DNA from: Actinomycetales bacterium
GTDB taxonomy: Bacteria > Actinomycetota > Actinomycetes > S36-B12 > UBA5976
Direction of reading: 5' to 3'
Length of the DNA: 64,000 bases
NCBI GenBank assembly: GCA_027484085.1
Contig: JAIXQF010000004.1
Location: 320,162 to 384,161 of the forward strand
This document shows, in pieces, positions 28,142-30,986 of the stretch (position 1 is the first letter of the stretch; every line of letters starts with the position of its first letter). The notes beneath the pieces are model-generated. The model was given only the letters and a program-made list of their open reading frames with translations. It was not told where the DNA came from and did not search any database. A program made the translations under genes and the position numbers.

Positions 28142-28150
28142 TGTGGATAT
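28142..28150 (-). promoter_or_regulatory. DnaA-box-like site (ATATCCACA)
   Basis: On the minus strand this reads ATATCCACA, one change from the TTATCCACA consensus. It forms one arm of the dyad CTGTGGATA-N12-TATCCACAG (28141-28170). Confidence 0.5.
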
Positions 28151-28160
28151 CCAAAATGGT

Positions 28161-28169
28161 TTATCCACA
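28161..28169 (+). promoter_or_regulatory. Perfect DnaA-box consensus (TTATCCACA)
   Basis: Exact consensus DnaA box on the plus strand, inverted relative to the site at 28142-28150, 50 nt before the unknown gene at 28220 and between divergent genes. A third match to the relaxed consensus TTWTNCACA lies at 29032-29040. Confidence 0.6.
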
Positions 28170-28219: not shown

Positions 28220-28777
28220 ATGGAATCGGCCGAATTCGAATCATCCCTGGTGAGCGAGCTGAACCAAGTCTTGTTGCAGGCCGCTGAAGAAGTGGCATCG
28301 GAAGAACGACTAGATCTAACTTATGAAGTGCTGGAAACCGTGCGTTTTGAACAGGCCCACATCTCTTGGCTTGATCGACTTAGAAATACTTCAAGTCCAG
28401 TCGAATTGCGACTTGCACATACCAACCTCCCTTTGGTCATTGGCGAGGTTAGAGCTTTGGCCGATCCATTTATCATTTTGGAGAATTCAACTTCACAACT
28501 TCTAATTAATTTTGAGCACGTAGTCGCAATCTCGGGACTTAGTGACCTGGCAAGAAGCCAAGCATCCCCTGATGCCGTTAGCTACCTAAGTAACGTTTGG
28601 CTTCGAGAACTTACTGATAGAAATGAAATCACTACTTGGTACCTTGCCGGTGATCAACTTATCGAAGGATTGTGTCTGCGCATCGGTTTTGATTCCTTAG
28701 ACATCGAATCAAATTCCAAAATTTTCACAATTCCAAACCGAACGATTGTCGCTATTAAAAGAGTCAAGTTTGAGTAG
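28220..28777 (+). CDS. Conserved-looking hypothetical protein, possible two small beta-barrels
   Basis: 185 aa, not recognised. N-terminal helix-like stretch (residues 1-45, acidic), then two segments of similar layout: VELRLAHTNLPLVIGEVRAL...ILE...LLINFEHVVAISGL (about 60-108) and TTWYLAGDQLIEGLCLRIGFDSLDI...FTIPNRTIVAIKRV (about 140-183). Each reads as alternating strands around a Gly turn, like SH3/Sm-type barrels; this is pattern inference only. ATG 28220 has GGA at 8-nt spacing; TTG 28202 is in frame upstream. It is convergent with the HTH gene 5 nt away, and its context (Rv3235-like, HTH, SAF, ATPase) suggests a shared process. Confidence 0.7.
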   Translation: MESAEFESSLVSELNQVLLQAAEEVASEERLDLTYEVLETVRFEQAHISWLDRLRNTSSPVELRLAHTNLPLVIGEVRALADPFIILENSTSQLLINFEHVVAISGLSDLARSQASPDAVSYLSNVWLRELTDRNEITTWYLAGDQLIEGLCLRIGFDSLDIESNSKIFTIPNRTIVAIKRVKFE

Positions 28778-28782
28778 TTTTA

Positions 28783-28992
28783 CTATCGAGGGTTTTGAGT
28801 TACAAATTCGGCAGTGGATGAGTAAAGCTGCTGAATAAAACTTTCAAGCACCCTGTCTTCTACGCGCCATTGCCCGCGCGCACCAATTTTGATTGCAGGT
28901 AAAGCCCCAGTGCGCACGAGGGTGTAAACCTGCGCTGGAGCGATGTTCAAAAGTTCCGCAACATCGCTAAGAGTTAAGAATCTTGCAGCCAT
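28783..28992 (-). CDS. BldC-like / excisionase-family HTH DNA-binding protein
   Basis: 69 aa. Nearly the whole protein is one MerR-type winged HTH: FLTLSDVAELLNIAPAQVYT (helix-turn-helix), then LVRTGALPAIKIGARGQWRV (wing) and a C-terminal helix VLESFIQQLY. Size and arrangement match BldC and small AlpA/Xis-type proteins. The start at 28992 is placed where the family begins; the open frame extends 27 codons further. It is divergent from the SAF/ATPase pair with about 117 bp between them, a natural place for it to act. Confidence 0.82.
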   Translation of the reverse strand: MAARFLTLSDVAELLNIAPAQVYTLVRTGALPAIKIGARGQWRVEDRVLESFIQQLYSSTAEFVTQNPR

Positions 28993-29056
28993 ACCTAAAT
29001 CATGACTAATAACGAAAGTATGTTCAAAAAGTTTTCCACACATCTGAATAGTGAAT

Positions 29057-29082
29057 GTCACAACACGTCTCACCTATGTGAC
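29057..29082. promoter_or_regulatory. Dyad GTCACA-N14-TGTGAC between HTH and SAF genes
   Basis: Perfect 6-bp inverted arms with 14-nt spacing, 28 nt before the SAF start codon, in the region between divergent genes. Possible operator for the neighbouring HTH protein; by chance such short arms are not rare. Confidence 0.3.
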
Positions 29083-29109
29083 GATAAGAAAAAGTTTGGA
29101 GGAACTAAC

Positions 29110-29757
29110 ATGGCAATTCCACTTCGAATTGGTCAAGGTATGCCAAGGGCGCCGCTTGTAAAGACAAACCGAAAGACTCAAGATCCAAGACTGTGGCTGG
29201 GGATCCTTTTCATGTTTGCTGCGATGGCTATTGGTCAGTTAGTAGTGAGTAGCGCATCCGCTCGAGTGCCGGCAGTGACTCTGACTTCAAACATTGCTCA
29301 AGGCGCACAGATTAGGGCAAGTGATGTCAGCGCAGTTCAGGTATCGGTTCCGATGAGCGAAAATTTAGTTTCAATTCCAAGCGATGTTGTTGGAAAGATT
29401 GCCGCGACAAACTTGTTTGTCGGAGATTTAGTACGTGTCCATTCGATTTCAGATGGCTTCGAACCGGATGTTCGCGCGGTAAGTATTCCGATCCGTGCAG
29501 GTCATTTACCGCAGGTAAGTCCAGGCGAGAGGGTGGATATTTGGATGACTCCGAGCCTTGATGGCGTGGCACTACCTGGGCCCGCACAATTGATTATTCC
29601 TAGCGCTGTCATAGCCAGCGCTCCAGAATATGTTGATTCCGGAATGGACACCTCTGTCACAGTTTCGATTTCGCAAGAACAAGTGCAGGTATTGGTTCAA
29701 GCCATGCGCGATGGGCTAATTGATTTGGTAGCAATTCCAGCAGCAGGGAATCCATGA
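29110..29757 (+). CDS. SAF-domain membrane protein (CpaB-like)
   Basis: 215 aa. Basic N-terminus, one membrane helix (WLGILFMFAAMAIGQLVV, about 31-48), then a SAF domain: NIAQGAQIRASDVSAVQV, VGKIAATNLFVGDLV, and SIPIRAGHLPQVSPGERVDIWMTP. CpaB/RcpC proteins use SAF domains in Flp/Tad pilus assembly, but no tadA, flp or cpaF gene is in the window. GGAGG 7 nt before ATG 29110 fixes the start; upstream in-frame codons are not family-like. The ATPase gene overlaps its stop by 4 nt. Confidence 0.82.
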   Translation: MAIPLRIGQGMPRAPLVKTNRKTQDPRLWLGILFMFAAMAIGQLVVSSASARVPAVTLTSNIAQGAQIRASDVSAVQVSVPMSENLVSIPSDVVGKIAATNLFVGDLVRVHSISDGFEPDVRAVSIPIRAGHLPQVSPGERVDIWMTPSLDGVALPGPAQLIIPSAVIASAPEYVDSGMDTSVTVSISQEQVQVLVQAMRDGLIDLVAIPAAGNP

Positions 29758-30986
29758 TGAAAAATTTGATAGCAGCTCTTGGCGTAGTGGATTGGGAAGC
29801 GCAGTTTGTTAGTGGGTTAGGTCACCCCATGTTTGGCTTGCAGGTGCAACGAAGATGCGTTGATGGCGTTGATGTCAGAGCTGCGATACAGGTTCTCGAT
29901 TGTCAGGGCGTCTTGGTTTCGGATGCCACACCACGAATCAGTCAAGATCTTGTTACGGAATTATCCGAAAAGAACATCATGTTGATCGCAATTACAGCTG
30001 ATGTTGAACATTGGCAGAATCTAGGAGTAGACCATTGCATTGAACTTGATCCAAAGAATCCACTGTCTGGACTTAAGCAAGTTTCGGAAGTTATGCGTGG
30101 TGAGACTCAAGCAATTGAGCCAGTAATTGAACCTAAAGGAACGCTAATCGCAGTTGCGGGGTTCGGTGGGTCTTGTGGCCGAACCATGGCGGTCAAAGAG
30201 GTCGGTTGGCAGTTGGCGAAACTCGGTGCCAAGACCTGCATGGTTGATGCCGACACTCATGGACCATCACTTGATCAAGAACTAGGTTACGAGCCGAACC
30301 AAAATGGCTTACTTGAATTATGCAGAGCTATTGAGAAAAAGAAATCAGTAACTCAAACTCATTTCGACTTGCTCCCCACACCTGCCGAAAATTTATCGTT
30401 AGTTGCTGGCTTGCCAAGAGTTTCGCGCTGGACAGATTTGCGTGTCAGTACATTGCGAGAAGTATGGCGCGAATCCAAGGAAGCCTTCGATGTTGTTCTG
30501 GCGGACATTGGTGGCGTACTGGAATTTGATAACAGCTTGCAGCATGAAACTTCGCTACCTCGTCGTCATGCGGCAGCGTTAACTGCACTTAACTCTGCAT
30601 CAATCACTTTGATTTGCGCCAGGGCAGACAGTGTTGGTATTGCCAGACTAGTTCGGGGCTATTTGGAATTTCATGAATTGTTTGCCCACACTGAAGTTCA
30701 TGTTTTGCTTTGGGGTGTTACGAGTGAAGCTCATAGAAAAGATGTTAAAACTGCCGTAAGCCGTCACACCGGAATTGCCTCAATTTTTGATACTTCGCAT
30801 AACTTTGAGATCACAAGCAAGGCCTTGAAGCAAAACACTTTTATCAGCAAGCTTGATCCAAAAACTGAAGTCACAAAGGAGTTTGAATCGATTTCCAAAA
30901 TCATCTATCAAGATCTTGGCATTCAAATCCCAATTCAAATGTCCAGTAGAAAACCAATTCGCAGCTTGTTGAAGCGCGCTGCCTAG
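29754..30986 (+). CDS. MinD/CpaE-like ATPase with altered P-loop
   Basis: 410 aa. Residues 1-125 resemble the receiver-like N-terminal domain of CpaE (VLDCQGVLVSDA, LIAITADVEHW, GVDHCIELD). The ATPase part follows: GFGGSCGRT (136-144) stands where MinD/ParA have KGGxGKT, so both the deviant-Walker Lys and the canonical P-loop Lys are replaced (GRT instead of GKT). MVDADTHGPSLDQELG (163-178) and DVVLADIGG match the following Walker A' and Walker B regions. Actinobacterial CpaE relatives with GRT loops exist, so it may still bind nucleotide. Coupled to the SAF gene by a 4-nt overlap. Confidence 0.8.
   Translation: MMKNLIAALGVVDWEAQFVSGLGHPMFGLQVQRRCVDGVDVRAAIQVLDCQGVLVSDATPRISQDLVTELSEKNIMLIAITADVEHWQNLGVDHCIELDPKNPLSGLKQVSEVMRGETQAIEPVIEPKGTLIAVAGFGGSCGRTMAVKEVGWQLAKLGAKTCMVDADTHGPSLDQELGYEPNQNGLLELCRAIEKKKSVTQTHFDLLPTPAENLSLVAGLPRVSRWTDLRVSTLREVWRESKEAFDVVLADIGGVLEFDNSLQHETSLPRRHAAALTALNSASITLICARADSVGIARLVRGYLEFHELFAHTEVHVLLWGVTSEAHRKDVKTAVSRHTGIASIFDTSHNFEITSKALKQNTFISKLDPKTEVTKEFESISKIIYQDLGIQIPIQMSSRKPIRSLLKRAA

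What the first reader, a model, noticed from the sequence alone, without database searches (positions are those of the whole stretch)
28220..30986. Four-gene group of unknown role next to secA: barrel-like protein, BldC-like HTH, SAF protein and P-loop-variant MinD/CpaE ATPase
Gene order and tight overlap (SAF/ATPase 4-nt overlap; HTH divergent from them) suggest one system. SAF and CpaE-like proteins normally belong to Tad/Flp pilus machinery, but no tad, flp or pilus gene is in the window. The likely function is therefore not classical pilus assembly, unless those genes are elsewhere. The Rv3235-like neighbour is also uncharacterised.
Basis: partly seen in the sequence, partly recalled or inferred. 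Interest (0 to 1): 0.55.

Follow-up and report, generated by a model that had tools for sequence, protein, structure and literature searches.

The report
Split-off half of a pilus locus
These four genes are a relocated piece of a known pilus machinery that related bacteria use to take up DNA; they include an unstudied double-barrel protein, and their control regions carry short sites that look like binding sites of the replication starter DnaA.

Summary
The four genes are real, but they are not a pilus-free system. The genome holds two tad loci outside the window. The second, Tad2 (tadA-tadB-tadC-small pilin-like gene-3 tadE/G-like, before prfB), starts 59 kb downstream and lacks cpaB and cpaE; the SAF protein and the ATPase fit those slots. 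The SAF profile hits RcpC/CpaB of known structure (E 7.5e-7); the ATPase is CpaE/TadZ-like with a family-wide Lys-to-Arg P-loop (64 of 68). In related genomes tadA lies downstream on the same strand, in the closest case 4.5 kb away, and ATPase and tadA co-occur across the class. The HTH-SAF-CpaE unit is published: in Micrococcus luteus ("cluster 13") deleting the SAF gene cut natural transformation 10^4-fold. Two things look undescribed. The "barrel" protein is a tandem repeat of Sm-like barrels and accompanies the ATPase in 137 of 146 genomes. A DnaA-box 9-mer (TTNTCCACA) precedes barrel, HTH/SAF and tadA across the host genus, and precedes HTH in 36 of 60 stretches, nearly all from the class-wide sample. 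The same 9-mer marks oriC, dnaA and dnaB, so I propose, untested, that DnaA co-controls this split DNA-uptake pilus.

The parts
28161..28169 (+). DnaA-box-type 9-mer TTATCCACA upstream of the barrel gene, with an imperfect inverted copy at 28142-28150
   Evidence: box before barrel in 15 of 15 same-genus barrel loci
28220..28777 (+). barrel gene: about 55-residue N-terminal part plus two tandem Sm-like small beta-barrel repeats (185 aa)
   Evidence: repeat 1 vs repeat 2 hhalign probability 97, E 1.1e-10; weak PDB profile hits to Sm/Hfq/SH3-like barrels in both halves, best E 0.0018 with 14 rows and 0.0051 with 49 rows; co-occurrence
28783..28992 (-). HTH_17 (excisionase/MerR-like) DNA-binding protein, 69 aa; likely counterpart of M. 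luteus Mlut_14660
   Evidence: Pfam HTH_17 E 4e-11; conserved sequence in relatives
29032..29040 (+). DnaA-box-type 9-mer TTTTCCACA in the HTH-SAF divergent promoter region
   Evidence: 300 bp upstream of HTH: 36 of 60 stretches; same genus 13 of 15 loci
29110..29757 (+). SAF protein = CpaB/RcpC-type pilus alignment-ring protein, one N-terminal hydrophobic segment (215 aa)
   Evidence: SAF over Pfam cut-off; profile A3 hits RcpC 9gzr E 7.5e-7, the only hit up to E 1
29754..30986 (+). CpaE/TadZ-like deviant-Walker ATPase with Lys-to-Arg P-loop (410 aa)
   Evidence: Arg at the P-loop Lys position in 64 of 68 aligned sequences, own included

Best explanation
This is the cpaB-cpaE half, with its regulator and a barrel protein, of an Actinomycetia-wide Tad (type IVc) pilus locus whose tadA-tadB-tadC-pilin half now lies 59 kb away. 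Shown: gene content, ancestral neighbourhood, co-occurrence and the shared DnaA-box-type sites. Inferred by homology: the SAF protein is anchored by its N-terminal helix and forms an extracytoplasmic ring through which the pilus passes, as RcpC does in Pseudomonas but without a secretin; the ATPase binds nucleotide with little hydrolysis and recruits or positions the machine; TadA (Tad2) and the single prepilin peptidase build and drive the pilus, perhaps together with Tad1, as in M. luteus where both tad loci are needed; the pilus feeds DNA to ComEA/ComEC, both present. Inferred more weakly: the HTH protein regulates its own divergent promoter and com genes, and DnaA, through TTNTCCACA boxes in front of barrel, HTH/SAF, tadA and the prepilin peptidase, sets expression of the dispersed units together. 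The role of the Sm-like barrel protein is unknown; my guess is RNA- or protein-binding control of this regulon.
For: Tad2 and Tad1 loci in the own genome (Pfam); one Peptidase_A24; ComEC and ComEA. Co-occurrence among 295 other class genomes: ATPase and tadA 124, ATPase only 22, tadA only 28, neither 121; 20 of the 28 are one family (f31), and all 7 f31 genomes tested have the SAF gene, with a diverged ATPase beside it next to secA in 3 of 3 loci read. Distance: of 61 genomes (own included) with both on one contig, 31 have tadA downstream, same strand, within 20 kb, 44 within 60 kb; in G199 everything from secA to prfB is in one run. Barrel and ATPase: both 137, ATPase only 9, barrel only 2, neither 147; 107 of 124 pairs with typed coordinates lie within 4 kb, barrel upstream in 107 of 107. 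M. luteus genetics: PMC8467076, PMC4322843. Boxes.
Against: 22 genomes have the ATPase without a detected tadA (several incomplete; at most 6 candidates per genome were scored); some complete genomes keep both about 1-2.7 Mb apart, so linkage is not universal. f31 has no labelled barrel or HTH in the 3 loci read yet keeps SAF, ATPase and Tad2, so these two are not indispensable. The gene in the flp position of Tad2 has no Flp-family hit. No M. luteus sequence was available, so its orthology rests on the paper's description. Co-occurrence counts are not corrected for phylogeny. Boxes: absent upstream of tadA in most genomes outside the genus (4 of 23 stretches have one, one of the four from the genus); two hits in 64 kb is itself the chance number; no exact box at comEA or Tad1 in the own genome.
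Confidence: 0.8

Rival explanations
1. The group is a pilus-independent system that uses CpaB/CpaE-like proteins for another envelope or positioning task.
For: The genes are not next to tad genes in this genome; 22 of 146 ATPase-bearing genomes had no tadA match at the threshold used.
Against: tadA downstream and close in many relatives, matched presence at family level (33 families with both, 2 with the ATPase only, 2 with tadA only), and published transformation loss on SAF-gene deletion in M. luteus.
Confidence: 0.07
2. SAF and ATPase serve Tad1 rather than Tad2, or serve both.
For: In M. luteus both tad loci are needed together for Flp filaments and transformation (PMC4322843, passages).
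Against: Tad1 carries its own CpaE-like protein, and the ancestral neighbour of SAF-ATPase is the Tad2-type tadA. A shared use is not excluded.
Confidence: 0.15
3. The conserved 9-mers are operators of the HTH protein, or DnaA titration sites without a regulatory role, not DnaA-controlled promoters.
For: The strongest conservation is in the HTH protein's own divergent promoter (36 of 60).
Against: The 9-mer is identical to the oriC boxes of this genome and occurs before dnaA and dnaB, and before dnaB in 4 of 4 genomes looked at; box orientation varies, against a -35 element; one of 3 HTH-less f31 loci still has a TTCTCCACA before SAF.
Confidence: 0.4

Closest known systems
Micrococcus luteus cluster 13 (Mlut_14660 HTH_17; Mlut_14650 SAF/CpaB; Mlut_14640 CpaE; PAS histidine kinase), PMC8467076
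   Same: HTH_17 gene divergent from a SAF-CpaE operon; two separate tad loci elsewhere; comEA/comEC present; the paper reports similar arrangements in Geodermatophilus, Rothia, Jonesia, Cellulomonas and, rearranged, in Nocardioides, Gordonia and Kytococcus.
   Different: No kinase follows the ATPase here (aspC does); the passages and sections that I read mention no Sm-like protein, no DnaA boxes (DnaA 0 occurrences) and no contiguous secA-to-tadA-to-prfB arrangement.
Pseudomonas RcpC/CpaB (PDB 9gzr; the RcpC structure paper PMC12307814)
   Same: SAF/RcpC domains after one membrane helix; profile match E 7.5e-7.
   Different: The present host is taken to be a monoderm (recalled), so no secretin partner is expected; shorter protein (215 aa).
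TadZ/CpaE and actinobacterial Ssd (TIGR03815)
   Same: MinD/ParA fold ATPase with atypical Walker A, gene next to cpaB.
   Different: Far below the Ssd cut-off (30.7 vs 154 bits); Arg replaces the P-loop Lys family-wide.
Hfq/Sm small beta-barrel proteins
   Same: Repeat pattern and weak PDB profile hits in both halves.
   Different: Two barrels in one chain with an N-terminal extension; no significant family match.

Membership tests
CpaB/RcpC | SAF domain followed by RcpC domain | tested here: met
   Pfam SAF over cut-off; RcpC E 1.2e-4 but below its cut-off; CpaB model TIGR03177 35.6 bits, below its cut-off of 71; profile vs PDB hits RcpC only, E 7.5e-7
CpaB/RcpC | N-terminal membrane anchor and extracytoplasmic ring assembly | not testable with these tools
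   a hydrophobic N-terminal segment is visible by eye in the sequence; topology and ring assembly not predicted or tested
CpaB/RcpC | encoded with a tad system | tested here: met
   Tad2 59 kb downstream; near in relatives
CpaE/TadZ | MinD/ParA-type P-loop ATPase, atypical Walker A | tested here: met
CpaE/TadZ | passes a curated CpaE/Ssd model | tested here: not met
   TIGR03815 30.7 bits, cut-off 154.45; so called CpaE-like, not an Ssd member
M. luteus cluster 13 | HTH_17 divergent from SAF-CpaE operon | tested here: met
   described in PMC8467076
M. luteus cluster 13 | PAS histidine kinase in the operon | tested here: not met
   aspC follows here; PdtaS-type kinases follow the ATPase in L183-L185 and L225
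DnaA regulon | DnaA box in promoters | tested here: met
DnaA regulon | DnaA binds and changes transcription | not testable with these tools
   needs ChIP-seq or band-shift and expression data
BldC | sequence match to BldC of known structure | tested here: not met
   no PDB sequence at E up to 1; that BldC is in the PDB is recalled
Sm/Hfq | significant sequence or structure match | tested here: inconclusive
   best profile E 0.0018 (a designed barrel) and 0.0051 (an Sm-like archaeal protein, label recalled); Hfq_1 matched by 4 of 49 members, best E 0.0019; single-sequence AlphaFold model unusable, pLDDT 35

The most novel reading that the evidence does not exclude
In Actinomycetia the Tad pilus that serves DNA uptake belongs to the regulon of the replication initiator DnaA: conserved DnaA boxes at the HTH/SAF, barrel, tadA and prepilin-peptidase promoters tie the dispersed halves together and couple DNA uptake to replication status; a tandem Sm-like protein is a hitherto unrecognised constant component.
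Probability: 0.4. Interest if true: 0.75.

Novelty: new variant of a known kind. Interest (0 to 1): 0.5.

Why it matters
It gives an often unnoticed cpaB/cpaE pair a home: PMC8467076 says that cpaB is absent from Gram-positive tad loci and may lie elsewhere in the genome; here the pair is shown to sit near secA across the class and, in some lineages, to be followed closely by tadA. It offers a reason why uncultured freshwater Actinobacteria could be naturally transformable, adds an uncharacterised tandem Sm-like protein to the system, and makes a concrete, testable link between DnaA and competence in a phylum where competence control is poorly known.

Tried and rejected
Rejected: a pilus-free system (see rivals); 'BldC-like' as a family claim; the 251-aa SAF start at 29002. 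Single-sequence AlphaFold of the barrel gave pLDDT 35 and was not used or searched. Profile-based search for related loci failed for lack of conserved stretches; the single-protein scan gave one named locus, a Candidatus Nanopelagicales MAG. Genes downstream of the ATPase were a PdtaS-type kinase in four loci (L225, L183, L184, L185), a wax-ester-synthase-like gene in three (L156, L108, L115) and without a Pfam hit in two (L154, L178) of the nine scanned for this (the tenth protein of that call, from L116, was an RNA-polymerase-beta fragment much further downstream); the kinase is therefore not a constant part. Literature searches gave no listed paper whose title or shown abstract treats DnaA boxes in actinobacterial competence or Tad promoters, or an Sm-like Tad protein; only the held open-access library was searched, and only five papers were opened (PMC8467076, PMC6668835, PMC4322843, PMC11577799, PMC12307814), of these PMC8467076 by sections and passages, the others by passages.

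Weak points: my ORF caller is naive and mislabels genes in high-GC loci; presence/absence tables were typed by hand from outputs 40, 46 and 51 (nine weak ATPase matches, E 6.8e-16 to 1.3e-37, were set apart; counting them changes 'both' from 124 to 128). The 9-mer was noticed first in the own genome, then tested on relatives; share some genomes, and members of the own genus are part of all three.
Full report
What is there. Window 28220-30986 holds barrel (+), HTH (-), SAF (+) and ATPase (+). The window is G000:C3:320162-384161 of a 1.8-Mb draft genome in 12 contigs. The only named relative found is a Candidatus Nanopelagicales MAG whose ATPase is 73% identical. SAF starts at 29110, leaving 117 bp between HTH and SAF. 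Names such as secA, gdh2, dedA, prfB, ftsE, ftsX, aspC, nusG and rplK, and the label Tad1 = Rv3660c-type, are read from the sequence or recalled; they were not tested here.

The tad genes are elsewhere in the genome. PF00437 matches twice, both outside the window. Tad1 (C3:63-68k) encodes its own CpaE-like ATPase, TadA, TadB, TadC and TadE-like proteins. Tad2 (C3:409.2-413.5k) encodes TadA, TadB, TadC, a 72-aa pilin-like protein without a Flp-family hit, and three TadE/G-like proteins (two with Pfam hits), followed by prfB-ftsE-ftsX, and has no cpaB or cpaE. There is one prepilin peptidase, and comEA-comEC.

The group is Tad2's missing half. In the order, 81 of 119 genomes have the ATPase at E 1e-5. 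In the fetched relatives the usual run is secA, DUF6459, barrel, HTH, SAF, ATPase, a variable stretch often holding gdh2, tadA, tadB, tadC, pilins, prfB. In 40 class-wide stretches, secA lies in the same stretch in 35 and all six genes from secA to ATPase carry labels in this order in 16; the others miss one or more labels, partly through my ORF caller (my count). In G199 the ATPase and tadA are 4.5 kb apart within one secA-to-prfB run. Of 61 genomes (own included) with both on one contig, tadA is downstream on the same strand within 20 kb in 31 and within 60 kb in 44. Across 295 other class genomes: both 124, ATPase only 22, tadA only 28, neither 121 (Fisher p 5e-32, not corrected for phylogeny). 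Twenty of the 28 are family f31; 7 of 7 tested f31 genomes have the SAF gene, with a diverged ATPase and secA beside it in 3 of 3 loci read, but without labelled barrel or HTH.

What the proteins are. SAF: profile A3 against all PDB sequences gives one hit up to E 1, RcpC, E 7.5e-7; RcpC forms a dodecameric ring proposed to guide the Tad filament (PMC12307814, passages). ATPase: MinD/ParA family; the P-loop Lys is Arg in 64 of 68 aligned sequences (72 rows, 4 with a gap there), so the 'variant' is a family trait; TadZ is described as having an atypical Walker A with low ATPase activity and as a hub that recruits Tad components (PMC6668835, passages). HTH: HTH_17, with a conserved core around RFLTL...DVAE.LN and RGQWRVE in relatives. 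Barrel: an alignment of 57 sequences, own included, shows that residues about 50-110 and 118-183 are repeats of each other (hhalign probability 97, E 1.1e-10 for this one comparison); PDB profile hits are at best marginal (best 0.0018 and 0.0051) but are mostly Sm, Hfq and designed SH3-like barrels, in both halves. Barrel and ATPase: both 137, ATPase only 9, barrel only 2, neither 147 of 295. They stay together in presence even where they are not neighbours: 17 of 124 pairs are on other contigs or more than 4 kb apart; some of these are contig breaks.

Published function. PMC8467076 (sections 17 and 24 read, other passages) reports that in M. luteus the divergent HTH_17 gene and the SAF gene were the densest mutation cluster in a screen for comEA/EC promoter activity; SAF-gene deletion lowered transformation 10^4-fold, a G27D mutant more than 10^5-fold, and the HTH gene could not be deleted. 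PMC4322843 (passages) reports that both M. luteus tad loci are required for Flp filaments and transformation.

A shared control site. TTWTCCACA occurs twice in the 64-kb window; for TTNTCCACA, also found twice, this is about the chance number. But both copies sit in promoter regions of this group: 28161 before barrel and 29032 between HTH and SAF. Genome-wide there are 32 copies against 17 for the reversed pattern: two before Tad2 tadA, one before the prepilin peptidase, five in the dnaA-dnaN intergenic region (taken as oriC), one before dnaA, one before dnaB, one before a dnaK-like gene, and others, several inside genes. Among fetched stretches, TTNTCCACA lies within 300 bp upstream of HTH in 36 of 60, SAF in 30 of 69, barrel in 12 of 58 and tadA in 4 of 23, against secA 1 of 42, prfB 0 of 10, gdh2 0 of 26, ATPase 0 of 67, tadB 0 of 4, tadC 0 of 18; 400 permuted motifs never exceeded 6 in any set. 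Without presetting the motif, TATCCACA is among the two commonest 8-mers of the HTH-SAF regions (17 of 46); in the barrel regions GC-rich 8-mers are commoner. In the host genus: HTH-SAF 13 of 15 loci (one lacks the region, one has no detected HTH), barrel 15 of 15, tadA 13 of 14. In G314, with 7 TTRTCCACA sites in 3.6 Mb, one is about 40 bp before tadA and one at HTH-SAF although the two loci are 1 Mb apart; two are before dnaB and three elsewhere. In G119, with 67 sites, one is 105 bp before tadA. In G201, with 40 sites and none near tadA, the boxes around dnaA-dnaN are TTGTCCACA while the HTH-SAF one and the one before dnaB are TTATCCACA. That this 9-mer is the DnaA-box consensus is recalled; its placement at oriC, dnaA and dnaB supports it. 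DnaA binding is not shown.

Verdict. A known kind of system, relocated, with two features that I did not find described and that are worth testing: the tandem Sm-like protein and the DnaA-box regulon.

Noticed in passing
L228:3567-4340 (-), G000:C3 about 298.6-299.3k: A second SAF protein (SAF domain, FlgA-like) in the own genome, weakly matching the SAF profile.
   Followed up: partly
L224, L225, L226: Family f31 (genomes of 1.2-2.2 Mb): secA-DUF6459-SAF-diverged ATPase, then a roughly 490-aa gene (PdtaS-type kinase in L225, the one scanned), with no labelled barrel or HTH.
   Followed up: partly
L318:2289-3035 (+): In G119 a second SAF/RcpC protein with a TTATCCACA box 60 bp upstream, outside the main locus.
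   Followed up: no
L004:12036-12254 (+): The gene in the flp position of Tad2 has no Flp-family match in Pfam or NCBIfam; small GDVPGW-type proteins sit in the same place in relatives.
   Followed up: no
G000:C3:200956, L263: DnaA-box 9-mer about 120 bp before a dnaK-like (HSP70) gene.
   Followed up: no
L097:6655-7637 and L096:1863-2866: Two small genes (one starting like an exported protein) between the ATPase and tadA in two genomes of one genus, conserved between them.
   Followed up: no
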